A stretch of DNA of 64,000 nucleotides from Catenulispora sp. MAP5-51 (GTDB lineage Bacteria; Actinomycetota; Actinomycetes; Streptomycetales; Catenulisporaceae), in NCBI RefSeq assembly GCF_041261205.1, contig NZ_JBGCCH010000002.1, positions 434,001 to 498,000 of the forward strand. The letters are read 5' to 3'. The notes beneath the pieces are model-generated. The model had not been told where the DNA came from. It saw only the letters and a program-made list of their open reading frames with translations, and searched no databases. The stretch's first letter is position 1; every line of letters starts with the position of its first letter. Below are positions 23,469-63,226 of the stretch, in pieces. Both the position numbers and the translations under genes were made by a program.

Positions 23469-25286
<1,818 letters not shown>

Positions 25287-25437: not shown

Positions 25438-27726
25438 ATGAGCACGACCACGGACACCGCCACACCGGGGGCGGACATGGGGGAACCGTCCGGGGGCGGA
25501 TCCGCGCCGAAGGACCCGTACATCCGCGGCACGGACGAGACCGTCCTGCTGGACCTGCGCGAACTGCGGGCCCAGGAGGCGGCGGACAAGGCGGCGCGCG
25601 AGGCGGCCGCCGGGCGCGGCGCGGGCGCGGAGCTCGCGACCACCGGGACTGCCGGGGCCGCCGGAACCATCGAAGTCGCCGGCACCGCCGGCACCACCGG
25701 GGCGGAGCTGGAGCGCTACCACGGCTCGCACCGCCGCGACGCCGTGCTGTACGCCGACGGCGGCACCGCGATCCCCCTGGACCGGGTCCGCGAGGTCTGC
25801 CACGACCTGCGCCAGCCGGTCGCCGCGATCCTGATGCTGGCCTCGGCGGCCGAACTGCGGCCGGACGTCCCCGAGCGGGTCCGGGACGTGCTGGGGGAGA
25901 TCATGTCCCAGACCGAGGAGATATCCGCCACGGTCCGCCAGTTCCTCGACGACGCCAAACAGGGCGTCGACGGCCTCGGCGCACCGGTCCCGTGCAACGT
26001 CGCGGGCCTGGCGGCGGAGTCCGTGGAGCGCTGGCGGGCCACCTTCGACGGCGCCCTGGACCTGGCCGCCGCCGAGGACCCGCTGCACGTGACGGTCGAC
26101 CCGGTCCTGTTCAAGCGGGCCCTGGGCAACGTCCTGTCCAACGGCACCCGCGCCGCCGGCGACACCGGCCGCGTCCAGGTGACCGTCCGCCGCTTCGAGA
26201 CCGCCGAGGGCGAACGCGCGGTGATCGAGGTCGACGACAGCGGCCCCGGCTTCGGCAACATCCCCAGCGGCCACGGCCTCGGCCTGGCCGTGGTCCGCCG
26301 CACCATAGAGGCGGCCGGCGGCTCGGTGGAACTGGCCGAGGGCCCCCTGGGCGGCGCCCTGGTCCGCCTGGTCCTCCCGGTCACCCCGATCCGCCCCCTG
26401 AGCGCCGACGACGAGCTGACGAAGACCTTCCACGGCGAGATCTCCCTGTCGCAGCTGGCCGCGGAACTCGCGGCGGGCGGCCCCGGCCGGCACCCGGCGC
26501 TGGCGGAGTTCGAGGGCGGGCTGTTCGACGACGATCTCTTCGACGAGGACGACGACGACTTCGAGGACGGCTTCGAAGGCGGTTTCGAAGGCGGTTTCGA
26601 GGACGAGGACGAGGCCGACGACGAGGAGGAGTTCGCGGAGGAGTTCGCGGAGGTTGTCGAGACCCCGGCGCCCGCCGCTCCCTCGCTGACCGGCGGCCAC
26701 GCGTTCCTGACCAAGCTCAGCGCCTGGCCGGAGCCGATGGCGATCCCGAGCACGCAGGAGCAGCTGGCGATCGGCGGGCCCGCGGGGCCGGGGAACCCGT
26801 TCGCGGCCCGGGCGACGGAGCAGCAGGAGGCGGTCGCGGTCGCCCCCGCAACGCCACCGCCCGCAACGCTCCCCCCGGCAACTCCCTCGCCGGCCATCGC
26901 ACCGCCGGCCGACAACCGCACCTACTTCGGCCTGCCGCTGAAGGACGACCCGGCGCCCCAGAACCGCCTCTACGGCGGATCCGCGGACATCGCCGCACAC
27001 CCGGTCCCCGCCAGCGTGTTCGCCGCACACCAGAACGCCGCGCACACACCTCAGGCCCCCGGCGAGATCGCCGCCGCCGCGCACCAGGGCCGGTCGGCGG
27101 CGCAGGGCCCTGCCGCCCAGCTGCCCGCTGCTCCCGCTCAGCCGCCTGCTGCCGCACCGGCCTTTCCCGCGCTGTCACCGGCGGCCAACCTGCCCGCGTC
27201 CCCGCTGGCCGGTCCGGCGCAGCCCGCCGCCCGGCCCTCGGTCGCCTTGCCTGGCGCCGCGCCAGCCGCTCAGGCTCCTGCCGCCGTGCCTGCCGCCTTC
27301 GCCGCACCGGTCACGCCCTCGGCGCAGGCCGCCGAGCCACCCGCCGCCGCGCCTGCCTTCGCCGGTCCGGTAGCGCCCTCGGCGCAGCCCGCCGCCACGG
27401 TGCCGCCCACCGGCCACCCCTCGGCCGCCGAGCCGCCCGCCGCGCCAGCCACTCAGGCCCCTGCCGCCGCGCCTACCGCCTTCGCCGCACCGGAAGCCGC
27501 CCAGCCCACCGAAGCCACCCCCGCCACCACCCCCACCGAACCCACCTTCGACCCCGGCGACACCCAGCCCCTCCACATCATCCCCACCGGTCAGGACGAC
27601 ACCGCCCTCGCCTCGATCCAGCTCCCCTCCCAGGCGACCCTGACCCATCCGCCGCGCATTCCCGCCTCGGCGCTGCAGCCGGTCGCCTCGGTCCAGCTCT
27701 CCCTGCTCCCAGGAGGCGCTTTCTGA
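25438..27726 (+). CDS. Soluble histidine kinase with long Ala/Pro-rich tail
   Basis: A 762-residue kinase without membrane segments. The H box is VCHDLRQPVAAILMLASAAE (His about 122). The GHKL ATPase follows with N box ALGNVLSNGTRAAG, G1 box DDSGPGFG and G2 GHGLGLAVVRR, ending near residue 330. Then come an acidic repeat FEGGFEGGFEDEDEADD and about 350 residues rich in Ala, Pro and Thr with no recognised domain. The stop overlaps the start of the next response regulator gene by one base (TGATG), so the two are translationally coupled. GTGGGG lies upstream of ATG 25438. The stimulus is unknown. Confidence 0.88.
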   Translation: MSTTTDTATPGADMGEPSGGGSAPKDPYIRGTDETVLLDLRELRAQEAADKAAREAAAGRGAGAELATTGTAGAAGTIEVAGTAGTTGAELERYHGSHRRDAVLYADGGTAIPLDRVREVCHDLRQPVAAILMLASAAELRPDVPERVRDVLGEIMSQTEEISATVRQFLDDAKQGVDGLGAPVPCNVAGLAAESVERWRATFDGALDLAAAEDPLHVTVDPVLFKRALGNVLSNGTRAAGDTGRVQVTVRRFETAEGERAVIEVDDSGPGFGNIPSGHGLGLAVVRRTIEAAGGSVELAEGPLGGALVRLVLPVTPIRPLSADDELTKTFHGEISLSQLAAELAAGGPGRHPALAEFEGGLFDDDLFDEDDDDFEDGFEGGFEGGFEDEDEADDEEEFAEEFAEVVETPAPAAPSLTGGHAFLTKLSAWPEPMAIPSTQEQLAIGGPAGPGNPFAARATEQQEAVAVAPATPPPATLPPATPSPAIAPPADNRTYFGLPLKDDPAPQNRLYGGSADIAAHPVPASVFAAHQNAAHTPQAPGEIAAAAHQGRSAAQGPAAQLPAAPAQPPAAAPAFPALSPAANLPASPLAGPAQPAARPSVALPGAAPAAQAPAAVPAAFAAPVTPSAQAAEPPAAAPAFAGPVAPSAQPAATVPPTGHPSAAEPPAAPATQAPAAAPTAFAAPEAAQPTEATPATTPTEPTFDPGDTQPLHIIPTGQDDTALASIQLPSQATLTHPPRIPASALQPVASVQLSLLPGGAF

Positions 27727-28472
27727 TGCCCACCAGGATCGTGCTCTGCGACGACCACACCCTGCTCACCGAGTCCCTGGCCGCCTCGCTGGCCGCGAAG
27801 GGCTACCAGGTCGAGGCCGTGACCTCGACGCCGGCGCAGGGGTTGGCCGCTGTGGCGTCCCTGGATCCGGACATCCTCATGCTCGACGTGCACTTCCCGA
27901 TGACCGTCTCGGCGCGGGCCGCCGCGTCGCCGCTGGCCACGGCCGGGGAGCAGGCGTTCCCGGTGTCGCGGCCGGGGAGTCGGATGGTGACGGCCGGGCT
28001 GGAGCTGGCGCGGGCGGTGCTGGAGCGGCATCCGCGGACCAAGGTGCTGATGGTCTCGGCGACCGATGATCCGGCGATCGTCAGCGCCGCGCTGGATCTG
28101 GGGGTTTCCGGTTTCACGCGCAAGGACCAGCGGATCGACGGGATCGTGCAGATCCTGGAGCGGGTCGCGGCCGGCGAGGTGGCGGTGGATCCGGAGCTGC
28201 TGCGGGCGGCGGTGCGGCATCTGAAGGCGCCGGACGTCGACCAGGCCGAGCGGACGCTGCGCTACCTGACGCCGCGCGAGCGCGAGGTGCTGCGGCGGAT
28301 CGTCGAGGGCGAGTCCACCAAGCAGATCGCCCGGGCCATGGACATCGCGCAGTCCACGGCCCGCACCCACGTGCAGAACGTGCTGGTCAAGCTGGGTGCG
28401 CACTCCCGGGTCGAGGCCTCGGCGATCGTCGCCCGGGTCGGCGCGGTGGACCGGCTGGGCGCCTCGCAGTAA
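27726..28472 (+). CDS. NarL/FixJ-type response regulator with an insertion in the receiver
   Basis: A 248-residue regulator coupled to the preceding histidine kinase. The receiver has the acidic pair in VLCDDHTLLTES, phospho-acceptor Asp54 in DILMLDVHFPM, SAT in MVSATDD and the Lys in FTRKDQ. Between the acceptor loop and AGLELARAVL there are about 30 extra residues (ASPLATAGEQAFPVSRPGSR and flanks) absent from normal receivers. The C-terminal LuxR HTH reads LTPREREVLRRIVEGESTKQ and ARTHVQNVLVKLGAHSRVEA. It probably controls local targets or the following genes. Confidence 0.93.
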   Translation: MPTRIVLCDDHTLLTESLAASLAAKGYQVEAVTSTPAQGLAAVASLDPDILMLDVHFPMTVSARAAASPLATAGEQAFPVSRPGSRMVTAGLELARAVLERHPRTKVLMVSATDDPAIVSAALDLGVSGFTRKDQRIDGIVQILERVAAGEVAVDPELLRAAVRHLKAPDVDQAERTLRYLTPREREVLRRIVEGESTKQIARAMDIAQSTARTHVQNVLVKLGAHSRVEASAIVARVGAVDRLGASQ

Positions 28473-28598
28473 CCGCCGGCGACGCCCCGGTGAACCGGCG
28501 GGGCCCGCGTCTAGACATGCGTCTACGTCATTTGGAGTACCGGCGGCTCCACTACATGGTGGTGGGCGGAAGCCCCGCGGCTTGCGAGGATGGGGAGC

Positions 28599-29321
28599 AT
28601 GCTTGACGCCTCCACGATCGGACTCGAGGACCGCCTCGAGGAGCGCCTTGACGTGACGGGCCTCGGGGAGGTCCGGATCCTCGTCGTCGACGACCACCGC
28701 ACCTTCGCCGAGGCCCTGGCCTCGCGCCTGCGCGCAGAACCCGGCTTCGGTGTGGCGGCGACCACCACCATCGACGGCGCCCGCCGCCTGATCGACGAGC
28801 GCCGCCCGGACGTGGTCCTGCTCGACGTCGATCTCGACGGCCGAGACGGCATCCGCTTCGCCGCCGAGATCCGCGCGAGCCATGCCGACGTCCGCATCGT
28901 CATGGTCACCGCCGGCGAGGAGGAGCGCCGGGTCGCCGAGGCGGTCCGGGGCGGTGTGAACGCCTGGGTCGCCAAGGACGGCTCGGTGGAGCACCTGCTC
29001 CAGGTCGTCCGCGGCGTCCTGCGCGACGAGACCCACATCCCGCCGCGCCTGCTCACCTACGTCCTGAGCGACCTGATGGCCGCCGAACAGGAGCGCAACG
29101 AGCACGAGACCCTGGTCGGCGCCCTCACCCCGCGCGAGCGCGAGGTGCTGCAGTGCATGGTGTCCGGCATGACCCGGGCCTCCATCGCCCAGCACCTGTT
29201 CCTGTCCCCCAACACGGTCCGCACCCACATGCAGAACGTCCTGGGCAAGCTCGGCGTACACTCCACGCTGGCCGCCGTGGCGGTGGCCCGACGTGCCGGA
29301 ATCGGGGAAGACCCCCGCTGA
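28599..29321 (+). CDS. Second NarL/LuxR-type response regulator
   Basis: A 240-residue response regulator with a complete receiver: VVDDHRTFAEAL, DVVLLDVDLDGRDG with the phospho-acceptor Asp, MVTAGEE, and VAKDGS. The HTH region is LTPREREVLQCMVSGMTRAS with NTVRTHMQNVLGKLGVHSTL. It follows the first regulator after 126 bases, which hold a GC-rich imperfect hairpin after the previous stop. No kinase lies next to it other than the one at 25438, so one kinase may serve two regulators. Start 28599 is chosen for GAGGA eight bases upstream; ATG 28590 is possible. Confidence 0.92.
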   Translation: MLDASTIGLEDRLEERLDVTGLGEVRILVVDDHRTFAEALASRLRAEPGFGVAATTTIDGARRLIDERRPDVVLLDVDLDGRDGIRFAAEIRASHADVRIVMVTAGEEERRVAEAVRGGVNAWVAKDGSVEHLLQVVRGVLRDETHIPPRLLTYVLSDLMAAEQERNEHETLVGALTPREREVLQCMVSGMTRASIAQHLFLSPNTVRTHMQNVLGKLGVHSTLAAVAVARRAGIGEDPR

Positions 29322-29346
29322 CCGGCGGAGGAACCGACGAGGAACG

Positions 29347-30858
29347 ATGACCGGAAAGCCCGATGCGCTGTGGGATGGGCCCGAACGGCCCGCCCTGCTG
29401 CACACGCTGATCATCGGCGCCGGACGGGCCGGCCGGGCCCTGGCCCGGGATCTGCGCGACGACGAAAGCCACGGACTCCACCCGATCGGCTTCCTCGACG
29501 ACGCCGAAGGTACCCGTGACGCCGAAGGCACCGACGACGCCGAAGGTACCGACCGCCCGGTACCACCCCGCCTCGGCACCCTGGCCGACCTGCCGCGTCT
29601 GCTGGACGAGCACACAGCCGACGCCGTCGTGCTCGCGATCCCCGGCCTGCCGACCCAGCGCGTCCGCGAACTGACCAGCACGGTGATCGCCGCGGGCGCC
29701 GTCGTCCGCCACCTGCCCTGGTACGCCGCCGCCCTGGCGCGCGAAGCGACCGCCTCCGACCTGCTGCCCCTGGACGTCAGGGCCCTGATCGACGGCCCGG
29801 AGCCGTATGTCGTCTCGCCCGAGGTCAAGGAGATCGTCACCGGCAAGCGCGTCCTGGTCACCGGCGCCGGCGGCGCGCTCGGCGCGGAGCTCTGCCGGCA
29901 ACTGCACGCCTTCAACCCGGACAGGCTGTTCCTCCTCGGCGGCGAGAAGCCGTCGCGAAGCCTGCTCGCGGACGTATGGGGTGAGGAACCGGCCACCGAC
30001 CTCCTCGACCGCGACGAGGCCGACCGGACGTTCCGCGACCTGCGGCCCGAGGTGGTGTTCCACGCCGCCGGGCTCAGGCACCCCGCCATCCTGGAACGCC
30101 GACCGAGCCAGGGCGTGACGGCCAACGTCCTCAGCACCGACAACCTCGTCCGCGCGGCGGCCCGACACGGCACCGAGCGCTTCGTCCGCCTCTCCACCGA
30201 CGCCGACCCGGCCTCGATGCTCGGCGCCTCCCACCGCGCCGCGGAAGCCGTCCTGCTCGGCGCCGCCCAGAAGATCGGCAGGACCGGCGGGACCAGCGGG
30301 ACCACCACGGCAGGCAAGGCCAGCAAGACCGGCAAGTCCGGCAAGAAGCACCGCGCGGAAACCGTGTTCGCCACCGTCCGCATCGGCGACGTCCTGGACG
30401 CCCGCGACTCCCTCCTGACCGTCCTGGCCCACGAGATCCGCGCCGGCGGCCCGGTGGCCGTCACCCACCCGGAAGCAGCCCGCTGCTTCGCGACCGTCGA
30501 GGAGGCCGTGGCCCTGACGCTGGAAGCAGCCCGGATGGCCACCGGCGGCGAGATCTACACCCTCGGCCTCCCCGAGCCGATGCGCGTCACCGAGGTGGTC
30601 TCGCGTTTCACCCGGCAGTACCGACTCCCCGAGGTGCCGATCCGCTACGTCGGGCAGCGCCAAAGCAGCAAAGCCCTCGAACAGGGCAGAACCATCCCCA
30701 CCGCGCACCCGCAGATCTTCACGACGCCCGACCACGCGGACTCCGCCGAGGACGCGCGCCTGCCGGAACGCCTGGACAAGATCTACAAGGCCGCCGCCAA
30801 GAACCGGGACCCGAAGGTGCGTCAGATGCTGCTGAGTCTGGCTAAATCAACAACCTGA
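29347..30858 (+). CDS. CapD/FlaA1-like Rossmann protein, soluble and catalytically degenerate
   Basis: A 503-residue relative of the CapD/WbpM sugar-nucleotide dehydratases. The first Rossmann motif IIGAGRAGRALARDL (about 18-32) and second motif VLVTGAGGALGAELCRQL (about 175) are clear, but the four N-terminal membrane helices are missing. At the active site the family sequence STDKA...MGATK reads STDADPASMLGASHR, so both lysines and the Tyr/Met are replaced. Two low-complexity inserts are present: three 18-bp repeats (29500-29553, encoding DAEGTx) and a Gly/Thr/Lys stretch near residue 315. A NAD-binding or scaffold role seems more likely than dehydration. It follows the second response regulator by 25 bases. 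Confidence 0.75.
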   Translation: MTGKPDALWDGPERPALLHTLIIGAGRAGRALARDLRDDESHGLHPIGFLDDAEGTRDAEGTDDAEGTDRPVPPRLGTLADLPRLLDEHTADAVVLAIPGLPTQRVRELTSTVIAAGAVVRHLPWYAAALAREATASDLLPLDVRALIDGPEPYVVSPEVKEIVTGKRVLVTGAGGALGAELCRQLHAFNPDRLFLLGGEKPSRSLLADVWGEEPATDLLDRDEADRTFRDLRPEVVFHAAGLRHPAILERRPSQGVTANVLSTDNLVRAAARHGTERFVRLSTDADPASMLGASHRAAEAVLLGAAQKIGRTGGTSGTTTAGKASKTGKSGKKHRAETVFATVRIGDVLDARDSLLTVLAHEIRAGGPVAVTHPEAARCFATVEEAVALTLEAARMATGGEIYTLGLPEPMRVTEVVSRFTRQYRLPEVPIRYVGQRQSSKALEQGRTIPTAHPQIFTTPDHADSAEDARLPERLDKIYKAAAKNRDPKVRQMLLSLAKSTT

Positions 30859-31050
30859 TCAGCATCCGACGCCTGATTCCCCCTACTGCATATCCACAAC
30901 GCCTCGGGCGGATACGGATTCGTACACGCATTCGCCCAGATGAGAGCACTGACCGCCGCTGCCCGGGCTCCGCCCCGGTACACGCTCCTCGCTGAGTAAC
31001 GCCTCTCCAAAACGCTGGCGCCCGCGCGTCACATGAGTAGGCTCGACTAC

Positions 31051-31467
31051 ATGGCGTACAAGGTCGAGCGCACCGAGGCAGAGTGGCGGCAGCATCTGGG
31101 ACCCGCCGCCTACAAGACCCTGCGCGAGTTCGGAACCGAGAACCCGTGGTCCGGCGCCTACGTCGAGAGTGACGATCCGGGCAACTACATGTGCCGGGGC
31201 TGCGACACCGCCCTGTTCGGCTCCCAATCCAAGTTCAACGCCGAGTGCGGGTGGGCCGCCTTCTCCGGCCCCCTCACCGACGACCTCATCGAGCAGCACG
31301 AGGACCGTTCGCAGGGCATGCTGCGCACCGAGATCCGGTGTGCCACCTGCGGTTCGCACCTCGGCTACCTGTTCAACGACGCACCGGAGGAGTTCGGCGG
31401 CTGGCGCTACTGCGTGAACTCGATCGGGCTGATGCTGAAGGAGTCGATGTCCAGTACGGCTTCCTGA
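31051..31467 (+). CDS. msrB: Peptide-methionine (R)-S-oxide reductase
   Basis: MsrB reduces the R epimer of methionine sulfoxide in oxidised proteins. 138 residues. Structural zinc is bound by CRGC and CATC. The catalytic segment is RYCVNSIGL with Cys121, and the conserved FNAECGWAAFS and HLGYLFNDAP blocks are present. I begin at ATG 31051 (MAYKVERTEAEW), the usual family start; an in-frame ATG at 31033 lies 18 bases earlier and no strong ribosome-binding site decides. It stands alone. Confidence 0.93.
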   Translation: MAYKVERTEAEWRQHLGPAAYKTLREFGTENPWSGAYVESDDPGNYMCRGCDTALFGSQSKFNAECGWAAFSGPLTDDLIEQHEDRSQGMLRTEIRCATCGSHLGYLFNDAPEEFGGWRYCVNSIGLMLKESMSSTAS

Positions 31468-49720: not shown

Positions 49721-50983
49721 TCAGAGTTTTCCAGCAGGGACCGGCGGCTGCATGACACGCCTTCGGCGCCGAGCCAACCACGCAGCCCCGGCGACTCCCC
49801 CGGCGGACAGTATCCCGCCTCCGCCAACAGCCAAAGCCCGCCCGGTGAAATCCCTCTGTGCCGGTGCCGCTGCGAACGAGAGCGGAGCTGGAGAAGCAGG
49901 AGGCGGAGTCGTTGCCGGCGCCGGTGTTGAGACGGAAGTCACTGCCGCGTAGGGGTCGACGATGCCCCATCCGTAGAACGCATCCGGCGCCCCGGCGGCC
50001 ATCCGGTCGGCGGTCGCGTACAGCCGCTGCCGTATCTGCGCGGCGGTCAGCGACGGGTAGCGGCTCCAGACCAGAGCGGCGGTGGCGGTGACGTAAGGCG
50101 CTGCGAACGACGTCCCCAGCCCCGAGGCCAGCGTCCCGTTGTCGGCCGGTCCGACGCCGAGCAGCGGAGCGTCCGCCGACCCGCCCGGAGCGGCCAGGCC
50201 GATGTACGCGCCGTGCTCGGAGTACGTCGCCACCGCCCGGTCCGCCCCGACCGCCGCGACCGCGATCACCCCCGGATACGCGGCCGGGTACTGCGGCGGG
50301 TCGCCGTCCTGCTGCGCCCCGAGGTTCCCGGCCGCCGCGACGATCAGCACCCCCGCGGCCTGCGCGTCGCGCACCGCCGCGGCCAGATCGGGCGAGTCCG
50401 TGGAACTCCCCGCCGACACGTTGACGATCTTCGCGCCCCGCGCCACCGCCTCCCGGATCCCCTGGGCGATCGGCGCGTCCTCGCTCTCACAGGTCTTGTA
50501 GGTCCGGATCGACAGCAGACTGACCACCGAAGGCGCCAGCCCCACCACCCCGGACCCGGCCCGGGCCCGCGCGGCGATGATCCCGGCGACCATGGTCCCG
50601 TGCCCGAGCGCGTCGGCGGTCGGCGGATAGGTCTTGGGATCGACGAGCGAGACGCTGTCCGCGACATCGACGGCGCCGGCCAGCTGCGGCGCCGCCACAT
50701 CGATCCCGGAGTCGACGACCGCGACCTTGACGCGGGTGCCGGATCCGGTGAACGGCGCCAGATCGCCGAAGCGCAAGGAGGTCTGGGCCCATGGCACCTG
50801 CGCGGTCACCGGCACCGCCTGCACCGAGGGCTGGCAGTCGTCGGCCGCGGCTGACGGCAGGCCGCCGACCGGCGCGGCCAAAAGCCCTGCGACGAGCACC
50901 GCCACCAGGCCACCGGCGGACGCCGCCCGCGCCGGCCCGCCGGAGCGCGCCCCGATCGATACGCCGTTCCCCACCCGTCTCAC
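49721..50983 (-). CDS. mycP: Type VII secretion mycosin (subtilisin-like serine protease)
   Basis: A 420-residue S8 protease of the mycosin family, membrane-anchored with the catalytic domain outside. Signal peptide about 15-45, then catalytic Asp in VAVVDSGID (about 86), His in LGHGTMVAG (about 126) and Ser in GTSFAAPYV (about 291). A Pro-rich linker and a C-terminal membrane helix with RRRRR end it. Mycosins stabilise the ESX machinery and process substrates. Its GTG start overlaps the eccC stop (GTGA), so the two are translationally coupled. Confidence 0.95.
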   Translation of the reverse strand: MRRVGNGVSIGARSGGPARAASAGGLVAVLVAGLLAAPVGGLPSAAADDCQPSVQAVPVTAQVPWAQTSLRFGDLAPFTGSGTRVKVAVVDSGIDVAAPQLAGAVDVADSVSLVDPKTYPPTADALGHGTMVAGIIAARARAGSGVVGLAPSVVSLLSIRTYKTCESEDAPIAQGIREAVARGAKIVNVSAGSSTDSPDLAAAVRDAQAAGVLIVAAAGNLGAQQDGDPPQYPAAYPGVIAVAAVGADRAVATYSEHGAYIGLAAPGGSADAPLLGVGPADNGTLASGLGTSFAAPYVTATAALVWSRYPSLTAAQIRQRLYATADRMAAGAPDAFYGWGIVDPYAAVTSVSTPAPATTPPPASPAPLSFAAAPAQRDFTGRALAVGGGGILSAGGVAGAAWLARRRRRVMQPPVPAGKL

Positions 50984-53900
50984 GCCACGTCCTCGCCGGC
51001 CCAAGCCGTCTGCAGCACCATCGTCCCGGTCCGCCGACTGACCAACTGCGCCCGCCCCGCCGGCAGCCGCATCGGCCGCGCGTCGCCGAGGAACACGCCC
51101 TCGTCCTTGCTGCACGACAGCAGCAGTCCCGGCGTGCTCAGCTCCCACAGCCGCCGCAGCACCGGGTCGTTCATGCCCCGGGCCGCGCCGGCCGTGGAGC
51201 GGGCCAGCACCAGGTGCAGGCCGATCTCCGCGGACTGCGGCAGCAGTTCCAGCAGCGGGGCCAGCGGCGTGCCGCGGCTGCCGATCATCAGGTCGTAGTC
51301 GTCCACCACCACGTACAGCTCCGGGCCGCTCCACCAGTCCCGCAGCCGCAGCCGCGCCGGCTCGACGTCCGGGCCCGGCACGCGTTGCAGCAGGACCGGC
51401 GTGATCTCCTTCAGCAGGTCCTCCAGCGCGCTCGCGGTCACCGCGTAGCCGAGCTGCTTCGACGGCGGCACCGCGTCGTGCAGGCGGCGGCGGGTGTCCG
51501 CCAGCAGGACCCTGACCTCCTTCGCCTCGGCGCGCTCGGTCACGGCCTTGGCGACCAGCCGCAGCAGGTTCGTCTTCCCGCTCTCGTTCTCGCCGAACAC
51601 CATCAGGTGCGGCGTGGCGGCGAACTCGTGCAGCACCGGCTGCAGCCGCGTCTCGTCCCAGCCCAGCGCCACCGCCGAGCGGGAGTCCGGCTGCGCCAGC
51701 CGCGCGGCGGGCAGCAGGGTCGGCAGCATCCGCACCGGCGGCGCGGCCTGTCCGGGGTGGGCCTTGGTGACGTACCGCACCAGGTCGCGCGTGCCCTCGC
51801 CGAGGGTCGCGGCGTCCGGATCGCCGTCGATGCGCGGCAGCGCGGTCAGGAAGTGCAGGCGCCCGCTGGTCAGGCCGCGGCCCGGCACCGCCGGCACCTC
51901 CTTGGCCAGCGCGGCGTTCACCTCCGAGTCGATCGGGTCGCCCAGGCGCAGCTCCAGCCGGGTCCCGATGAGGTCGCGCAGCCAGGGCCGCACCTCGGTC
52001 CAGCGCGCCGCGGTGATCACCAGGTGCACGCCGAAGCCGAGCCCGCGCGCGGCGATGTCCTGGATGGAGGGTTCCAGCCGTTCGTAGTCCTGGTGGAAGG
52101 TGAACCAGCCGTCGATGACCAGAAAGACATCGCCGAACGGGTCGTCCGGGAACTCCCCGGAACGCCGGCGCCGCCGGTACTCCGCCATCGACCCGATCCC
52201 CCGCGCGGCGAACGCCTGCTCGCGCTCGGCCAGCAGCATCGAGACCTCGGCGACGGTCCGCGTCACCTTCTCCCCGTCCAGCCGGCCGGCGACGCCCCCG
52301 ACCTGCGGCAGGTCCGACAGCCCGGTGAGCCCGCCGCCGCCGAAGTCCAGGCAGTAGAACTGCGCGTCGCGCGGGGTGTAGCGCAGGCTCAGGGAGCTGA
52401 TCAGGGTCCGCAGCATCGTCGACTTGCCGGACAGCGGCGCCCCGACCACCGCGACGTGGCCCGCCGCCCCGGCCAGGTCCGCGACCAGCGGATCGTGCCG
52501 CTGCTCGAAGGGCCGGTCGGTGACGCCGAGCACGGCCAGCAGGGTGTCGTCGGGCCCGTTCACGCCGCGCGCGGGACCGGCCGCGCCGGACAGCGCCAGC
52601 GAGCCGTAGTTCGTCGCCCGCGGGTCCGGGTTCGGCAGCCCGCCGGTCAGCGCCGCGACCGCCTCCGGCAGCAGCGCGTCCAGGGTCGGCGGCGTGGACA
52701 GCGGCGGCAGCCAGATGCGGTGCGCCGGCCGGCCCTGCCCCTGCATCCGGCCGGCCAGGACCTGAAGCGTGGTCTCGGAAACCGGGGGGCTGGTGAACTC
52801 CTCCTCGGCCTCGGCCTCCGCCGCCTCGGCCTGCGGGGCGACCCGCGGCGCCAGGTACGACGAGCGATACCGGATCACGTGGTAGCGCCCCGAGTCCTCG
52901 GTCTCCTCGCCGGCCTTCGGCGGGACGTACGGCGCCGAGACGTACCCCGCGCGGAACCGGATCAGCGGATCGGTCCCGCAGCGCAGGAAGCCGTGCCCCG
53001 GCGTCGACGGCAGGTCGTAGGCGTCGCCGACGCCGAGCACCGCCCGGGACTCGGCCACCGAGAACGTCCGCAGACCGACGCGGTAGGACAGGTGGCCCTC
53101 CAGCGCGTGGATGCGGCCCTCGTCAAGCCTCTGCGACGCCAGCAGCAGGTGCACGCCGAGCGAGCGCCCCAGCCGGCCGATCATCACGAACAGCTCCAGG
53201 AACTCCGAGTGCGCCGCGAGCAGTTCGCTGAACTCGTCGACGACCAGGAACAGCGACGGCAGCGGCGCCAGCGGCACCCCGGAGTTGCGGGCCGCCTCGT
53301 AATCGCGCAGCGAGGCGTAGTTCCCGGCGGCGCGCAGCAGCTCCTGCCGCCGCACCATCTCCCCGTGCAGCGCCGTGTACATGCGCTTCACCAGCGGCAG
53401 CTCGTCGGCCAGGTTGGTGATGACGGCCGAGGTGTGCGGCAGCTTGTCCAGCCCGAGGAACGTCGCGCCGCCCTTGAAGTCGACCAGGACGAAGTTCAGG
53501 ATCTCGGGGTCGTTGCGGACCGCCATCGCCAGCACCAGGGTGCGCAGCAGCTCGCTCTTGCCGGAGCCGGTGGCGCCGATGATCATGCCGTGCGGACCGG
53601 TGCCGCCCTGCGCGGCCTCCTTGATGTCCAGCTCGGCGGGCAGCCCCTGCTCGGTCAGGCCGAGCGGGACCCGCAGCCGCTCCCGGTTCGGGCGCGGCTG
53701 CCAGGTCTGCGCCGGGTCCAGGCCGCGCGCGTCGCGAATGCCGAGCAGGCCGGTGAAGGAGATGTCGCCGGTGCCGCGGCCGCCGGAATCCCCGGTGCCG
53801 CTCACCCGCAGCGGGGCCAGAATCCGCGCCACGGCCGAGGATTCCGCGGTGCTCAGCGTCGCCGCGCGTCCCAGCGGGTTGACGTCCTCGCTGCCGGCCC

Positions 53901-55035
53901 GGTCCGAGGTCACGGCGGCCAGCACGGCGTCGGCGCCCTCGCGGGTCGCGCGCAGCCGCAGCGTCGCCACCGGGGCGTCCGGCCCGACGGCCGCGCCGGT
54001 CAGATCCAACAGCACGGCGTTGCGGTACCCGCTGCGCAGCGCGCGGTGGTCGGCCGGCAGCTCGCCGCCGTCCAGCAGGATCACGGTGAACGGCTCGCGC
54101 GCGCTCGGCGCCGCCGCCGGATCATGCGGCCCGCGCTCGCGGAAGTCGCCCGGATCCAGCAGCCGCTCCAGGTCCGCGAAGCTGTCGCTGATCAGCCGCA
54201 CCCGGCCGACCGCGTCGACCTCCGAGGCGTGCAGCGCGTGCGGCAGCCACTTGACCCACTCCCAGCGCTCGCGCGTGGTGTCGCCGCAGTGCACGGCGAT
54301 CCGCAGGTCCTCGGGACTGTGCATGACCGCGAGCTGGGTCAGCAACGCACGCGCCACGGCCCGGGCCGCCGGTCCGTCGCCGTCGAAGGCCACCCGCGAG
54401 AACGCCCGCAGGTTCGCCGCGATCGGCAGGTCCGGGATGGTCTTGTAGGCCTGCAGGAACCGGCGCAGCGCGTTCGCCGACACCGGGTCCAGGTCCTCGA
54501 TCGGCTTGGTCTGCGGCGGCGCCATCCTCACCGCCAGCGCCATCGGCCCGGTGGCCAGGCGCACCTCGGCGAAGTCCCGGTCGGCCGGGCCGCGCTCCCA
54601 GAGCCGGCCGCTCATCGCCACCGACCACAGCGCTGCCGGGTCCGGGTGCCGCCAGGTGAGGGCCTTGATCTGGGCGTCGATGTGCTTGCGGACCTGGCGC
54701 CGGTTCTGGTCCAGGTGCCGGAGGTAGTCACGGCGGTCCCCGGACAGCTTGGCCTTCTTGTCCCCGCCGCCGCGGCCAACCTGCATGCCTACCATGCCCA
54801 GGGAGGACACCGCCATCATGCCGCCGGCCAGATAGTTGGTGGGCTTCGCGCCCGGCTGCAGGAACATCATCGCCATGGCGCCGCTGCTGGCCGCCATCGG
54901 TACAGCCATCATCGCTTGTCCAAGGCCTCCGGACACCGGCTCCGGGATCGCCGGGGGTTCCTGGAAAGCGATCTCTCCTTGAGGGAACTGCGGGGCGGGG
55001 CGGCGCGGCACCGGCCGGAATTCTCGGATGCTCAA
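50980..55035 (-). CDS. eccC: Type VII secretion ATPase EccC
   Basis: The FtsK/SpoIIIE-type motor of the ESX system, 1351 residues. N-terminal cytosolic strand RRPAPQFPQGEIAFQEPPAI then two membrane helices (about 40-85). Three ATPase domains follow: Walker A GATGSGKS (about 487) with VVDEFSELL, degenerate second GAPLSGKS (about 865) and third GENESGKT (about 1148). EsxB-type substrates bind the third domain in known systems. TTG 55035 is chosen because TTG AGC ATC CGA opens both eccC and the divergent eccD in a perfect inverted repeat; the frame is open further upstream and GAAGCAGAG precedes it. Confidence 0.95.
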   Translation of the reverse strand: MSIREFRPVPRRPAPQFPQGEIAFQEPPAIPEPVSGGLGQAMMAVPMAASSGAMAMMFLQPGAKPTNYLAGGMMAVSSLGMVGMQVGRGGGDKKAKLSGDRRDYLRHLDQNRRQVRKHIDAQIKALTWRHPDPAALWSVAMSGRLWERGPADRDFAEVRLATGPMALAVRMAPPQTKPIEDLDPVSANALRRFLQAYKTIPDLPIAANLRAFSRVAFDGDGPAARAVARALLTQLAVMHSPEDLRIAVHCGDTTRERWEWVKWLPHALHASEVDAVGRVRLISDSFADLERLLDPGDFRERGPHDPAAAPSAREPFTVILLDGGELPADHRALRSGYRNAVLLDLTGAAVGPDAPVATLRLRATREGADAVLAAVTSDRAGSEDVNPLGRAATLSTAESSAVARILAPLRVSGTGDSGGRGTGDISFTGLLGIRDARGLDPAQTWQPRPNRERLRVPLGLTEQGLPAELDIKEAAQGGTGPHGMIIGATGSGKSELLRTLVLAMAVRNDPEILNFVLVDFKGGATFLGLDKLPHTSAVITNLADELPLVKRMYTALHGEMVRRQELLRAAGNYASLRDYEAARNSGVPLAPLPSLFLVVDEFSELLAAHSEFLELFVMIGRLGRSLGVHLLLASQRLDEGRIHALEGHLSYRVGLRTFSVAESRAVLGVGDAYDLPSTPGHGFLRCGTDPLIRFRAGYVSAPYVPPKAGEETEDSGRYHVIRYRSSYLAPRVAPQAEAAEAEAEEEFTSPPVSETTLQVLAGRMQGQGRPAHRIWLPPLSTPPTLDALLPEAVAALTGGLPNPDPRATNYGSLALSGAAGPARGVNGPDDTLLAVLGVTDRPFEQRHDPLVADLAGAAGHVAVVGAPLSGKSTMLRTLISSLSLRYTPRDAQFYCLDFGGGGLTGLSDLPQVGGVAGRLDGEKVTRTVAEVSMLLAEREQAFAARGIGSMAEYRRRRRSGEFPDDPFGDVFLVIDGWFTFHQDYERLEPSIQDIAARGLGFGVHLVITAARWTEVRPWLRDLIGTRLELRLGDPIDSEVNAALAKEVPAVPGRGLTSGRLHFLTALPRIDGDPDAATLGEGTRDLVRYVTKAHPGQAAPPVRMLPTLLPAARLAQPDSRSAVALGWDETRLQPVLHEFAATPHLMVFGENESGKTNLLRLVAKAVTERAEAKEVRVLLADTRRRLHDAVPPSKQLGYAVTASALEDLLKEITPVLLQRVPGPDVEPARLRLRDWWSGPELYVVVDDYDLMIGSRGTPLAPLLELLPQSAEIGLHLVLARSTAGAARGMNDPVLRRLWELSTPGLLLSCSKDEGVFLGDARPMRLPAGRAQLVSRRTGTMVLQTAWAGEDVA

Positions 55036-55142
55036 CGTTAGCTCTGCTTCCCCTGGCGGCCTGGTCACACGACCCGCGATAGTCGAGCACTCGTCTGGAC
55101 CAGTGCGCAAAGGAAAGAAGAGCGGGACGTTGAGCATCCGAG
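55023..55142. promoter_or_regulatory. Divergent eccC/eccD promoter flanked by a perfect 16-bp inverted repeat covering both starts
   Basis: CTCGGATGCTCAACGT (55023-55038) and ACGTTGAGCATCCGAG (55127-55142) are exact inverses. Each copy contains the TTG start codon and first codons (Leu/Met-Ser-Ile-Arg) of the gene reading outward. The 88 bases between must hold both promoters. Confidence 0.85.
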
Positions 55143-56632
55143 CCACGCTGCCAGAGGCCGACTTGTGTCGGCTCTCCATCGCGACCCCTGCCAACGTGCT
55201 GGAACTCGCGCTGCCCACCGCGGTCCCCCTGGCGGACTTCCTACCAGCAATCTTGAGCTTCGCCGGTCCCGAGCTGGCCGACGCCGGCCTGGCCCACGAC
55301 GGCTGGGTGCTCCAGCGTGTCGGCGGCGCCCCGCTGCCGGCCGCCCGCACCCTGGCCGAGCTGCAGATCCTCGACGGCGAGACGCTCTACCTGCGGCCGC
55401 GCCGCGCCACCGCGCCGACCGCCGTCTTCGACGACGCCGTGGACGGCCTGGCGACCGCGGTGCGCGAACGCGAGGACCGGCTGCGCGAGGGTGCCGGCCG
55501 CTGGGCCGGACCGGTACTCGGCACGGTGGCGCTGGCCGCCGGGGCGGCGGGTGTGGCGGCCGGCTCCGGCCCGGTCGGGCAACGCGCCGGGATCGCCGGC
55601 GCGGTGGCCGTCCTGGTCCTGATCGCCTCGGCGGTCGCCGGCCGCGTGATGGCCGCGCGGCCGACCGCCACCGCGCTCGGCGTCGCCGCCGTCGGCTGGG
55701 CCGCGCTCGGCGGCTGGCTCGCGGCGGACACCTTCGCGCACTCGATGACGCACCCGGAATCGGCGTCCGCGCTGTGGGCCGGGGCGGCGGCGCTGCTGGC
55801 CTCCGCCGGCGCCGCCGCGGCGGTCGGCGGATCGGTCGACACCGCCGGGCACTTGGCGGCCGCGCCGCGCCGGTCGCAGACCGGGACCGCCGTCCTGGAC
55901 GAGCCGGTGGCCGACGCCAGCGGCCTGGAACCCTTCGCCACCACGGCGGTCGTCGCGTTCGGCACGGTCGTGGCCGGGGCACTCGGCGTCGGCCTGAACC
56001 GCGCGCTGACCCAGACCACGGTGCTCTCGGCCGTGATCGGGCTCGCATTCGTCCTCGCGGTACCCCGGCTCGCGTTCCGCCTTGCCGGACAACGGCTTCC
56101 GGCCTTGCCCGCCACGGCCGAGCGGATCCAGGTCGACCTGCCGGCCCGCGGCCAGGCGGACCTGTGGGCGACCTCGGCGCGCGTCGATCGGATCATGGCG
56201 GCCCTGCTGCTCGGCAGCGGACTGCTCGCGGTCGGCGGGGCGACCCCGGCCGCCGGGCACGGGGTGCTCGGCGCCCTGGCCGCCGCCGACCTGGGCGTGG
56301 CCTTCCTGTTGCGGGCCCGCGTGTTCGCCCGCACCGCTCTCAGGCTGCTGATGCAGAGCATCGGGATGCTCGTGCTGGCCGGCGCCGCCTGGCGCGCGTC
56401 CGCCACCGGGCACACCCACACCGGCACCGTCGGCGTCACCGCCGGGATCGCCGTCGCCACGCTGCTGATCGGGCTCATCGCGGCCTCGGTCGGGCCCCGG
56501 CAGGCCAGCGACGACCCGCCGTACGCGGCGCGCGCCGCCGACATCTGCGAGTACTTCGTGCTGATCGCGCTGGTACCGCTGGCGCTCGGGGTGCTAGGCG
56601 CCTTCGGCTGGGCGCGCGGACTGGCGGGCTGA
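55130..56632 (+). CDS. eccD: Type VII secretion membrane channel component EccD
   Basis: A 500-residue integral membrane protein. Residues 1-85 are a ubiquitin-like domain (LSIATPANVLELALPTAVPL, then GWVLQRVGGAPLPAARTLAE and DGETLYLRPR), followed by about 11 hydrophobic helices, the standard EccD arrangement. It forms the membrane pore ring with EccB and EccC. TTG 55130 lies in the inverted repeat with AAGGAAAG 13 bases upstream; GTG 55103 is a possible alternative. eccB starts three bases after its stop. Confidence 0.93.
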   Translation: MSIRATLPEADLCRLSIATPANVLELALPTAVPLADFLPAILSFAGPELADAGLAHDGWVLQRVGGAPLPAARTLAELQILDGETLYLRPRRATAPTAVFDDAVDGLATAVREREDRLREGAGRWAGPVLGTVALAAGAAGVAAGSGPVGQRAGIAGAVAVLVLIASAVAGRVMAARPTATALGVAAVGWAALGGWLAADTFAHSMTHPESASALWAGAAALLASAGAAAAVGGSVDTAGHLAAAPRRSQTGTAVLDEPVADASGLEPFATTAVVAFGTVVAGALGVGLNRALTQTTVLSAVIGLAFVLAVPRLAFRLAGQRLPALPATAERIQVDLPARGQADLWATSARVDRIMAALLLGSGLLAVGGATPAAGHGVLGALAAADLGVAFLLRARVFARTALRLLMQSIGMLVLAGAAWRASATGHTHTGTVGVTAGIAVATLLIGLIAASVGPRQASDDPPYAARAADICEYFVLIALVPLALGVLGAFGWARGLAG

Positions 56633-56635
56633 GAC

Positions 56636-58060
56636 GTGGCGACACGGCGGCAGGAACTGCAGGCCCACCGGTTCATGGTGCGGCGGCTGACCGCGGGGCT
56701 GGTCAACGGCGACCCCGGCGCCGCGCAGCCCCCGGCGCAGCGGCTGAGGGCGGGGCTGTTCCTCGGGACGGCGGTCGGAGTGCTGGGAATCGGCGGGGCG
56801 GCCGTGGTCGGCCTGATCTCGCCGAAGACCGATGCCTCCTGGCGGGACGGCCAGTCGGTGGTGGTGGAACAGGGTTCTTACAACCAGTACCTCTACACCG
56901 ACGGGGCACTGCACCAGGTCCTCAATCAGGCCTCGGCGATGCTGGCACTGCCGAAGTACGCGGTGCGCGCCGTCCCGGCCTCGGCGCTGAAGAACGTGCC
57001 GCGCGGCACCCCGGTGGGGATCATCGGCGCGCCCGCGGACGTGCCGGACCCCGCCGCGCTGATCGGCGGTCCGTGGACGGTGTGCTCCTCGGCCGGCCCC
57101 GACGGCAAGGCCCAGGTCTCCGCGGCGCTCGGCGTCGAGGTCGCGGGCACCGATGTGGCCGACGGCCAGGCGCTGTACGTCGGCGTCGGCGACGCCCGGT
57201 ACCTGGTCTGGGGCGGGCAGCGGCATCTGCTGAAGGCCCCGCTGGCGACGATGACGGCCTTCCAGATGACCGCGGCGCAGGCGACGGCGGTCGGCGCGGC
57301 CTGGCTCAACGCGGTGCCGGCCGGATCGGACATCGCGCCGCTGAGCGTCGGGGCCCGGACCGCCTCGGCCGGTCTGGGGACGGTCGGGGACCTGTACACC
57401 TACCAGGACGCCAGCGGCAGCTACGAGTACGTCGTCACGGCTCAGGGCCTGACGCCGGTGAGCCCGACGCAAGCCGCACTCCTGCGCGCCGGCGGTTCTC
57501 CGGCGCCGCGTCCGCTGGACCCGAACCGGCTCGTCGCGGCGAAGCAGCAGAACCAGGTGACCGCCACGCTCCCCGGCGACCTGCCGGCCGCGCTGCCGAC
57601 ACTCGCCGCAGGCTCCGGTTCGGGTCTGGGTCTGGGGCCGGGTCAGAACGGAGCCGCCGGCGGCGCGAACGCGGTGTGCCTTGAGGAGACGCCGGCTTCG
57701 GACCCGACGGCCGCGCCGGTCTACCGGCTCCGATCGGTCACCGCGTCGGCTGTCGATGCGGCCGGCGCCTGGAGCGCCACCGACGCCGCCGACAGCGGCG
57801 CCGGCCGCGCGGACCGCGTCCTGGTCCGGCCCGGCGCCGGCGCCCTGGCGACCTCGACGGCCGGCGGTGTGGCTCAACTCCTCAGCGCGGTCGGCGAACG
57901 CTTCCCGGTGGCCTCCAAGGACGACCTCGGCCGCCTCGGCTACGCGTCGGCCACCCCGGCGTCCGTCCCGGCCCCGATCCTCGACCTGTTCCCCGAAGGA
58001 CCCGCGCTCGATGCGAACGACGCGCGGACACCTAGGCCCGCTACCGTGTCAGCGCCATGA
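56636..58060 (+). CDS. eccB: Type VII secretion protein EccB
   Basis: A 474-residue EccB: MATRRQELQAHRFMVRRLTAGLV is the diagnostic cytosolic start, one membrane helix lies at about 40-62, and the rest is the external propeller-like domain with VPRGTPVGIIGAPADVP and GDLYTYQDASGSYEYVV, with a conserved Cys pair (WTVCSS and NAVCLEE). GTG start. Probably in one operon with eccD and the following membrane protein gene. Confidence 0.94.
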   Translation: MATRRQELQAHRFMVRRLTAGLVNGDPGAAQPPAQRLRAGLFLGTAVGVLGIGGAAVVGLISPKTDASWRDGQSVVVEQGSYNQYLYTDGALHQVLNQASAMLALPKYAVRAVPASALKNVPRGTPVGIIGAPADVPDPAALIGGPWTVCSSAGPDGKAQVSAALGVEVAGTDVADGQALYVGVGDARYLVWGGQRHLLKAPLATMTAFQMTAAQATAVGAAWLNAVPAGSDIAPLSVGARTASAGLGTVGDLYTYQDASGSYEYVVTAQGLTPVSPTQAALLRAGGSPAPRPLDPNRLVAAKQQNQVTATLPGDLPAALPTLAAGSGSGLGLGPGQNGAAGGANAVCLEETPASDPTAAPVYRLRSVTASAVDAAGAWSATDAADSGAGRADRVLVRPGAGALATSTAGGVAQLLSAVGERFPVASKDDLGRLGYASATPASVPAPILDLFPEGPALDANDARTPRPATVSAP

Positions 58061-58091
58061 TCGCCCGACCGCCAGCGAGGAGGAAGCGCCG

Positions 58092-59276
58092 ATGGCGTTT
58101 GACGAGGACGGAACCGAGCGCGAAACCGTTCCCCTGCCCGACGCGGAAGCCGCACACGACGATCTGAACTCCGAGGCCGGACTCGATGGCGATGTCGACA
58201 GCATCACCGTCACCAGCTCCCGAGCCGGCGGCGAGCCCGCCGGTGAGCCCGATGACGGACCCGGCGATGAGCCCAGAGACGAGCCCGCGGATGAGCTCGA
58301 AGACGAGGGCGAATCGGCAAGCCGGTGGCCGGATGCCGCACCCGCCGGCCGTTCCAAGGGCCTGATCGCCGCCGCGGTGGCCGGGGTGCTGGTGGTCGGC
58401 GGCGCCGTCGCGGCGACCGTCGGCGGCGGCTCGGGCAAGGGCGCCGACAAGTCGGCCGCCCCCACCGCCGGACTGGTCGGCCAGCAGGTGCCCAGCAGCG
58501 GCGACGGCGGCTACGCCAGCGGCGCGACCGGCGATTCGCCGTGGGTGTGGCAGACCGGGCAGCAGACGGCCAAGTACCCCGGCGCGACCACCGGGACCGG
58601 GACCGGGTCCTCGGCCGGCGCGCCGAAGCCGACCGGCGCAGGTTCCACGTCCGGTCCGGGCTCGCAGTCCTCGGGCCCGGGGTTGGCGCAGCGCAGCTCC
58701 TCCGCGCCCGGTGCCCCGCCCGCCCCGTCGTCGTCCGCAGGCGGACCCGCGACCCCGCCGGCGTCGGCGCCGCCGGCGACCTTCACGCTGGTGGCCGGCC
58801 CCGGCTGTCCGGGACTGGCCGGGAACGGCGGCTACAGCTCGGTCGGCTCCGGCGCCAGTTCCGGCTGGGGCAGCAACGGCAGCGGCGGATGGGGAAGCGA
58901 CGGCTGCGACGGCTCGATGCAGTCGATGCCGATGACCGGCGACGCGACCAACGGCTCCAACCGCGCGGTCTGGTCTTTCGGCAGCGGCACCGCGCAGGCC
59001 GCGTCGTGCACCGTGAGCGTCTACGTGCCCTGGGACGGCAAGGCCACCGACACCGGCGGCACCGCGGCGGACTACCAGGTCGCCGAAGGCCCCTCCGACA
59101 CCACGGTCGCCGACTACACCGTGAACCAGAACACGGCCCACGGAAAGTGGGTCACGCTGGGCACGGTCAACGTCGGCGGCGCCAGTGTGAAGCTGCGCCT
59201 GCTCGACCACGGCGTCGACTACCCGGCGGGCTGGCGCTACGGGATCTCGGCGGCCAGATTGCAGTGCACGGCCTGA
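58092..59276 (+). CDS. Membrane-anchored protein with golvesin-like C-terminal domain
   Basis: A 394-residue protein: an acidic cytosolic N-terminus (about 1-90, with GEPAGEPDDGPGDEPRDEPA repeats), one membrane helix (GLIAAAVAGVLVVGGAVAAT), a Ser/Gly/Pro-rich extracellular stalk, a Gly/Trp repeat (SSGWGSNGSGGWGSDGCDG), and a C-terminal beta domain AVWSFGSGTAQAASCTVSVYV to WVTLGTVNVGGASVKLRLLD resembling golvesin or xanthan-lyase CBD-like modules. It likely contacts the wall or a polysaccharide. Good GAGGAGG upstream. Position suggests a role with the secretion machine; function unknown. Confidence 0.75.
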   Translation: MAFDEDGTERETVPLPDAEAAHDDLNSEAGLDGDVDSITVTSSRAGGEPAGEPDDGPGDEPRDEPADELEDEGESASRWPDAAPAGRSKGLIAAAVAGVLVVGGAVAATVGGGSGKGADKSAAPTAGLVGQQVPSSGDGGYASGATGDSPWVWQTGQQTAKYPGATTGTGTGSSAGAPKPTGAGSTSGPGSQSSGPGLAQRSSSAPGAPPAPSSSAGGPATPPASAPPATFTLVAGPGCPGLAGNGGYSSVGSGASSGWGSNGSGGWGSDGCDGSMQSMPMTGDATNGSNRAVWSFGSGTAQAASCTVSVYVPWDGKATDTGGTAADYQVAEGPSDTTVADYTVNQNTAHGKWVTLGTVNVGGASVKLRLLDHGVDYPAGWRYGISAARLQCTA

Positions 59277-59308
59277 GCTCCCTGAACTCCCTGAGCTCCC
59301 TGAGCAAT
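59273..59308. repeat. Four 9-bp units over the stop codon of the golvesin-like gene
   Basis: CTGAGCTCC at 59273, CTGAACTCC at 59282, CTGAGCTCC at 59291 and CTGAGCAAT at 59300. The TGA of the first unit is the stop codon; every unit supplies another TGA in the same frame. Confidence 0.75.
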
Positions 59309-59352
59309 CCCGGCGGGGGCGGATCCGGCGAGTGGGGCACGCCGGCTCCGCC

Positions 59353-60051: not shown

Positions 60052-60178
60052 GAGTCCACTTTCGCGGGTGGCTCACCATTTGCTCAACATCTCACGGACC
60101 AGCCCTTGTTGGGTCTTGGCGGCGGCTGTTCAGATTTCAGTGACGACCGGCAGCAACGAACAGACACAGGAGCCCGCC

Positions 60179-60520: not shown

Positions 60521-60602
60521 TCCCGCCCCCGGGCCGCCGCGCGGCGGGCCCGGATCGCACCCCGAATGCTCAGCGACCACACCGCACCGTAAGGAGACCG
60601 TA

Positions 60603-60890: not shown

Positions 60891-60941
60891 CGCCGGCCAC
60901 CCCCGCCAACCAGTCCGCGAGCTCGAGAGTAGGAGACGGTC

Positions 60942-62263: not shown

Positions 62264-62265
62264 CC

Positions 62266-63105: not shown

Positions 63106-63226
63106 GGCGTACCGCGTCCCGCGGCCCGGTCTGTACTCTCCCAAGTCACGACCGGGCCGCGGTACCGGCATGTCCGCACCCGACCGAACGCCCGCTCCTC
63201 CCCCACCACACCGAAGGCCCGCGCCC

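What the first reader, a model, noticed from the sequence alone, without database searches (positions are those of the whole stretch)
25438..30858. Four-gene locus joining a soluble kinase, two LuxR-type regulators and a degenerate CapD-like protein
Kinase and first regulator overlap by one base; a second regulator and a CapD-like protein follow on the same strand (the last gap is 25 bases). The kinase has no membrane part and an uncharacterised 350-residue Ala/Pro tail, the first regulator has a receiver insertion, and the CapD-like protein lacks both the membrane part and the catalytic lysines. Together they could be an intracellular signalling system that senses NAD(P) or a sugar nucleotide through the CapD-like protein. 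The grouping is seen; the function is inferred. I do not know of a described system of this composition.
Basis: partly seen in the sequence, partly recalled or inferred. Interest (0 to 1): 0.65.

Follow-up and report, generated by a model that had tools for sequence, protein, structure and literature searches.

The report
Sugar-coat control genes, dead enzyme
A soil bacterium keeps an almost unchanging three-gene signalling unit that in some related bacteria stands in front of genes for a cell-surface sugar polymer, while here the sugar pathway seems lost and only one inactivated enzyme gene of it remains.

Summary
The four genes are real and placed as described; the genome is a Catenulispora. 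Three genes form a conserved unit: a soluble histidine kinase and two NarL/LuxR-type regulators (RR1, RR2). It recurs in Kribbella, Humibacillus, Knoellia and Pedococcus with a short kinase; the Ala/Pro tail was seen only in Catenulispora. In Kribbella (10 of 10 loci), Humibacillus, G396 and Catenulispora G003 and G005, a DegT aminotransferase, a soluble CapD with intact catalytic motif and polysaccharide genes follow.

In seven other Catenulispora genomes, this one included, that DegT is not found. Their CapDs share a two-residue deletion removing the catalytic lysine; the second lysine is replaced. They change far faster than the regulators. A tenth genome has no CapD there. So CapD is most likely a relict, not the sensor.

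New here: the half-site TGACGTA lies before RR2 (15 loci) or DegT (10 loci) in all 25 loci tested, against 5 of 106 other gaps. In Catenulispora it is part of a 7-2-7 inverted repeat found once per genome (4 of 4). Seven further loci of the kinase family lack it. Phosphotransfer, DNA binding and control of the glycan are inferred.

The parts
25438..27726 (+). soluble histidine kinase, 762 aa: phospho-acceptor His122 in HDLRQP, ATPase domain, long tail
   Evidence: Pfam; alignment with relatives
26428..27723 (+). kinase tail, Ala/Pro-rich with an acidic stretch; last 50 residues (27574-27723) nearly invariant in Catenulispora
   Evidence: mostly pLDDT below 50
27726..28472 (+). RR1, NarL/LuxR-type response regulator, phospho-acceptor Asp54
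   Evidence: Pfam; alignment
27903..28004 (+). insertion in the RR1 receiver, about residues 60-93
   Evidence: alignment; present in the 10 Catenulispora copies with varying length
28519..28539 (+). candidate operator GCGTC-TACGTCATTTGGAGTA, 7-2-7 inverted repeat at 28524-28539, holding TGACGTA on the other strand
28590..29321 (+). RR2, NarL/LuxR-type response regulator, phospho-acceptor Asp79
   Evidence: Pfam; alignment
29347..30858 (+). CapD-like relict, soluble, two Rossmann parts, catalytic lysines absent
   Evidence: Pfam
30199..30204 (+). place of the shared two-residue deletion (STD-AD against STDKAAD in intact relatives)
   Evidence: alignment
23469..25286 (+). context: ABC-F ATPase upstream of the kinase
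   Evidence: Pfam and NCBIfam; same place in the Catenulispora loci that reach this far
31033..31467 (+). context: SelR (MsrB-type) gene downstream
   Evidence: Pfam

Best explanation
A conserved actinobacterial two-component unit (soluble kinase, RR1, RR2) that in its fuller form controls a neighbouring cluster for a cell-surface glycan made with a CapD/PglF-type dehydratase and a DegT aminotransferase. The kinase would phosphorylate RR1 Asp54 and/or RR2 Asp79, and a regulator dimer would bind the TGACGTA site and switch RR2 (Catenulispora, Knoellia group, Humibacillus) or the DegT-CapD genes (Kribbella). In most Catenulispora the rest of the cluster was lost, the unit stayed under strong purifying selection and CapD survives as an inactive relict. 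Shown: gene order, homology, missing catalytic residues, rates, place of the motif. Inferred: phosphotransfer, DNA binding, direction of control, the sugar made, and that the cluster was lost rather than gained by G003 and G005.
For: Unit-DegT-CapD order in Humibacillus, Kribbella and G396 and the same genes in G003 and G005. Of 196 Propionibacteriales, 11 have soluble CapD and 11 of those 11 have the kinase within 4.3 kb. In 394 class genomes soluble CapD is in 3 of 8 unit genomes and 1 of 386 others. Shared deletion in 7 of 7 lone CapDs; one clade, 100/100, beside the G003/G005 CapDs, on a stem of 0.56 changes per column (6 of 7 used). DegT and RtcB-like genes missing from those seven genomes. 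Motif in one gap of all 25 loci against 5 of 106 other gaps; palindrome once per genome in 4 of 4.
Against: G105, G343, Knoellia and Pedococcus have the unit without a glycan cluster in the stretch read. Two of the 13 Propionibacteriales kinase genomes have no soluble CapD. No motif in seven further loci of the kinase family, two of which (L090, L178) do have gaps, nor in the RR2-Wzz gap of G003 and G005. The motif runs in the opposite direction in Catenulispora, and TTGACG could be a promoter -35 box in the others. Humibacillus RR2 lacks the acidic pocket residues. Lone CapD dN/dS is below 1 (0.37-0.53), so it is not plainly neutral.
Confidence: 0.6

Rival explanations
1. The dead CapD was recruited as a non-catalytic sensor or scaffold: it still binds a nucleotide or sugar nucleotide and modulates the kinase or regulators.
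For: Still next to RR2 in seven Catenulispora genomes, with a long open frame and dN/dS below 1 in the five compared; a second CapD-like protein without the lysines lies 7.7 kb from a kinase-RR1 pair in G400; the fold model still resembles PglF.
Against: Missing from the locus in G007; changes 11-36% where RR2 changes 0-0.9%; an intact enzyme in the same place elsewhere; the aspartate at the end of the second strand of the Rossmann fold (LLDHDE) is Gly in G000, G004 and G008, which should weaken cofactor binding.
Confidence: 0.17
2. The unit serves a general cell function unrelated to glycans, and polysaccharide clusters merely settle beside it in some genera.
For: Unit without the cluster in G105, G343, Knoellia and Pedococcus; strong conservation in Catenulispora genomes that lack the cluster; RR1- and RR2-like genes near ABC-F also in genus g4 of the order; the second palindrome-like site lies before an unrelated membrane-protein gene.
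Against: Fixed order and co-occurrence in Kribbella and G396; the half-site moves to the DegT gene where RR1 and RR2 overlap.
Confidence: 0.18
3. The four genes are neighbours by chance and CapD has nothing to do with the regulators.
For: Fast change of CapD and its absence in G007.
Against: The recurrent unit-DegT-CapD order in other genera and the co-occurrence.
Confidence: 0.05

Closest known systems
PglF/WbpM/CapD UDP-GlcNAc 4,6-dehydratases (PDB 5bju and variants)
   Same: Best PDB matches by sequence and by fold; cluster CapDs keep TDK and the later K
   Different: Soluble two-Rossmann form; the window copy lacks both lysines and belongs to no visible pathway. PglF Lys397 role from passages of PMC8987622
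BldM-WhiI and RcsB-RcsA regulator pairs
   Same: Two NarL/LuxR-type regulators that could act as a pair; RcsB-RcsA controls capsule genes (PMC4125116, passages)
   Different: Here both genes lie with one soluble kinase; in the window both keep the phospho-acceptor Asp; heterodimers untested
Orphan NarL regulators SCO3134 and SCO3144 of Streptomyces coelicolor
   Same: RR1- and RR2-like proteins near an ABC-F gene in genus g4, which I take to be Streptomyces: 37-47% and 50% identical
   Different: No kinase of the family at 1e-35 there; the RR1-like proteins lack phospho-Asp and Lys (5 of 5). The SCO numbers are my recall; PMC9739842 Table 1 lists both only as orphan NarL regulators (passage)

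Membership tests
Two-component system | HisKA and HATPase_c in the kinase; receiver and GerE in the regulators | tested here: met
   Pfam above cut-offs
Two-component system | Phospho-acceptor His, Asp and conserved pocket residues | tested here: met
   His122, RR1 Asp54, RR2 Asp34/35, Asp79, Lys129, by alignment
Two-component system | Phosphotransfer from kinase to regulator | not testable with these tools
   needs purified proteins
PglF/CapD dehydratase | Polysacc_synt_2 domain | tested here: met
   1.4e-46
PglF/CapD dehydratase | TDK...Mx3K catalytic residues | tested here: not met
   Lys of TDK deleted, later Lys replaced by His in the window copy; motif from PMC8987622
PglF/CapD dehydratase | Partner aminotransferase in the cluster | tested here: not met
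   cluster-type DegT only in G003 and G005; the window genome has only weaker homologues elsewhere
NarL-type operator | Two inverted heptamers spaced by two bases, bound by the regulator | tested here: inconclusive
   7-2-7 layout present and conserved; fits the NarL heptamer as I recall it only in part; binding untested

The most novel reading that the evidence does not exclude
The inactivated CapD is a true pseudoenzyme partner of the unit: after the glycan pathway was lost it was kept as a sugar-nucleotide or NAD-binding input to the kinase, with a second, separate case in G400.
Probability: 0.15. Interest if true: 0.8.

Novelty: new variant of a known kind. Interest (0 to 1): 0.52.

Why it matters
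It turns an odd four-gene locus into a testable story: an actinobacterial kinase-regulator-regulator unit with a candidate DNA site of its own, which in several genera stands in front of a glycan cluster, and a case of regulators outliving their pathway. If the site is right, the regulon and the glycan of poorly known soil actinobacteria become directly testable, and the lone CapD shows an enzyme dying beside its controller.

Tried and rejected
Rejected: lack of membrane helices in CapD as a sign of decay, since the soluble form is a family. Rejected: the kinase tail as part of the core system, since the relatives aligned lack it.

Weak or failed: a neutral simulation gave few stop codons even without selection, so an open CapD frame is poor evidence of function, and its amino-acid counts are biased by rare A/T at fourfold sites; I do not use it. 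YN00 gave no value for most pairs. My pattern there caught 6 CapDs (5 lone), so rates for G001, G006 and for G003 against G005 were not computed. flags one in-frame TGA in G001's CapD match; not followed up. The Kribbella promoter scan showed no inverted repeat common to all, and its script missed L184 and L185. One-mismatch palindrome hits outside Catenulispora are about what I reckon chance would give. The kinase of Nocardioides caldifontis and two kinase-like genes in G235 have no RR1 beside them. G472, G436 and a second kinase in G431 lie near RR1-like genes without CapD. Gene calls in other genomes are from my own simple gene finder.

Literature: searches; two returned no paper; in 64 I saw 12 of 39 titles, in 87 10 of 12. 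By titles and abstract starts none describes this cluster. Passages only were read of PMC9739842, PMC8987622 and PMC4125116. Subscription papers are not held.
Full report
What is there. The window lies in a 10.9 Mb genome. Nine further genomes of its genus were searched. A named Catenulispora pinistramenti contig has a kinase 94% identical, with the same helicase and ABC-F neighbours, so the genus is Catenulispora. G004 is one contig of 10,467,782 bases, which I recall as the size of C. acidiphila DSM 44928. The four genes sit at the stated places. Pfam gives HisKA and HATPase_c for the kinase, Response_reg and GerE for both regulators, Polysacc_synt_2 for CapD. Upstream is an ABC-F ATPase, downstream a SelR gene.

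Conservation inside the genus. RR1 is in 10 of 10 Catenulispora genomes at 93-100% identity and in 0 of 4 genomes of two other genera of the family at E 1e-30. The kinase core is 89-100% identical in the five genomes compared. The tail varies in length and sequence apart from islands and the last 50 residues. G003, which has the fuller cluster, has a tail too, so the tail does not depend on loss of CapD activity. The kinase model is confident for the catalytic core and mostly below pLDDT 50 from residue 321. G007 (77% complete) has a frame break in the tail.

CapD tells a different story. In G003 and G005 the RR2 gene is followed by an uncharacterised gene that I call Wzz-like by eye (no Pfam match), a DegT aminotransferase and CapD. 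In seven genomes, the window's included, CapD follows RR2 directly. In G007 RR2 is followed by the SelR gene. The cluster DegT is found at 88-100% only in G003 and G005; the other eight genomes have only 29-38% homologues. The RtcB-family gene is in G003 alone, G005's contig ending before it. All seven lone CapDs share a two-residue deletion in STDKAADP that removes the lysine equivalent to PglF Lys397, and the later lysine is His, Gln or Tyr; G003 and G005 keep both. A review gives TDKxnMx3K as the PglF motif and Lys397 as acting in dehydration (PMC8987622, passages). In the tree the lone CapDs are one clade (100/100) beside the G003/G005 pair, on a stem of 0.56 changes per column (6 of 7 lone copies, G001 left out). 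Five lone CapDs differ by 11-36%, where their RR1s differ by 0.4-2.4% and RR2s by 0-0.9%. Nei-Gojobori dN/dS is 0.37-0.53 for CapD and at most about 0.04 for the regulators of the same five genomes, so some constraint on CapD, or slow decay, remains. The fold model (mean pLDDT 66, 15 sequences) matches PglF best in the PDB.

The unit outside the genus. A profile of the kinase core matches 39 of 394 class genomes at 1e-20, but only nine genomes below 1e-35, with a gap to 1e-26. Eight of the nine have an RR1 gene beside the kinase (G000, G076, G105, G108, G129, G343, G396, G400); in five of these RR2 follows as well (G000, G105, G108, G343, G396); G235 has no RR1. Named loci with the unit: Knoellia, Humibacillus, Kribbella and Pedococcus. 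Kinases there are short, about 190-260 aa. Humibacillus and Kribbella continue with DegT and soluble CapD; in G396 one gene intervenes. Soluble CapD (E below 1e-151) is in 4 of 394 class genomes, G000, G029, G129 and G396; the next hits are the longer kind or fragments. In G129 the CapD looks split over two contig ends, one of them the kinase contig, so that linkage is inferred. This is 3 of 8 unit genomes against 1 of 386 others, Fisher 2.2e-5.

In 196 Propionibacteriales genomes soluble CapD is in 11 and the kinase in 13; all 11 have both, 2.6-4.3 kb apart, Fisher 2.5e-16. Ten of the eleven are one genus, so they are not independent. I call it Kribbella because the G480 stretch is identical in kinase, RR1 and RR2 to the named Kribbella record L098; the two are counted once. 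The ten loci share one order: beta-helix-like gene, kinase, RR1, RR2, DegT, CapD, RtcB-like, beta-helix-like, Wzz-like, HprK-like, GT4, and the CapD motif is intact in 10 of 10. Against a universal link, G105, G343, Knoellia and Pedococcus carry the unit without such a cluster in the stretch read.

Genus g4 of the order, which I take to be Streptomyces. An RR1 match at 1e-30 is in 42 of 45 genomes. Five were read closely: each has an RR1-like gene downstream of an ABC-F gene, and three have an RR2-like gene too. The RR1-like proteins lack phospho-Asp and Lys in 5 of 5. No g4 genome in the class sample has a kinase match below 1e-35. I think these are SCO3134 and SCO3144, listed only as orphan NarL regulators in a review table (PMC9739842, passage); the link to those numbers is recall.

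A candidate DNA site. The RR1-RR2 gap of 10 Catenulispora genomes holds TACGTCATTTGGAGTA, two inverted heptamers spaced by two bases, exact in nine and altered in G005. The symmetrical pattern TACKYCANNTGRMGTA occurs once in each of four whole genomes, with no match to the reversed control. Allowing two mismatches adds one site per genome, identical in all four, about 95 bases before a Pro-rich membrane-protein gene (distance from L196; I call it DUF2510-like by eye). The half-site TGACGTA also lies 62-77 bases before RR2 in G105, G343, Knoellia, Pedococcus and Humibacillus, and before DegT in 10 Kribbella genomes. So each of 25 loci has it in that gap, before RR2 in 15 and before DegT in 10, against 5 of the other 106 gaps of at least 60 bases. 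Those 106 include the Humibacillus gap before DegT, where a second copy lies just inside the end of RR2. A first-order simulation gives 0.3-2% per region by chance. I chose the half-site after seeing Catenulispora and Kribbella, so only the five other loci test it, and four of these share one neighbourhood. Seven further loci of the kinase family lack it there (L090, L091, L092, L095, L101, L177, L178), some for want of a gap or at a contig end, but L090 and L178 do have gaps.

How it most likely works. The kinase, soluble and without a recognised sensor domain, would read an internal cue and phosphorylate one or both regulators, which bind the TGACGTA site as a homodimer or a mixed dimer, as known for BldM-WhiI (PMC4125116, passages). 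In Kribbella this would set the DegT-CapD genes and so an amino-deoxy sugar of a surface glycan; in Catenulispora it sets RR2. The lone CapD should not be able to carry out the PglF reaction. Every step from phosphorylation on is inferred.

Verdict. CapD as sensor is the weaker reading; a regulatory unit that outlived its pathway is the better one. In eight literature searches I saw no description of this unit, cluster or site; the parts are of known kinds.

Noticed in passing
L074:14140-15597, L097:10057-11511, L098:8844-10304, L179-L188, L077:8552-9991: An RtcB-family protein (Pfam 1.1e-48 for the L074 copy) is a constant neighbour of DegT and CapD in these glycan clusters: an RNA-ligase homologue in an odd place.
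   Followed up: partly
L177:17730-18821: In G400 a shortened CapD-like protein reads SSDLAAEP...GATMR, lacking both lysines, 7.7 kb from a kinase-RR1 pair: a possible second, separate inactivation; its place in the tree is unsure.
   Followed up: partly
L196-L199, position 1501: A second, two-mismatch copy of the palindrome, identical in four genomes, between an hppD-like gene and a Pro-rich membrane-protein gene, names by eye.
   Followed up: partly
L077:17204-19879, L078:8222-10954: In G055 and G029 the DegT aminotransferase and CapD are fused into one protein of about 900 aa.
   Followed up: no
L080-L084: RR1-like regulators of genus g4 have lost the phospho-Asp and Lys, and the RR2-like ones carry a receiver insertion at the place where Catenulispora RR1 has its own.
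   Followed up: no
L069:9348-12065: G004 has a 905-aa gene, beta-helix-like by eye, between CapD and the SelR gene that the window lacks; perhaps another cluster remnant.
   Followed up: no
window about 50980-64000: A 1305-aa gene and small genes near 60-64 kb look like a type VII secretion cluster, by eye from the gene list only.
   Followed up: no
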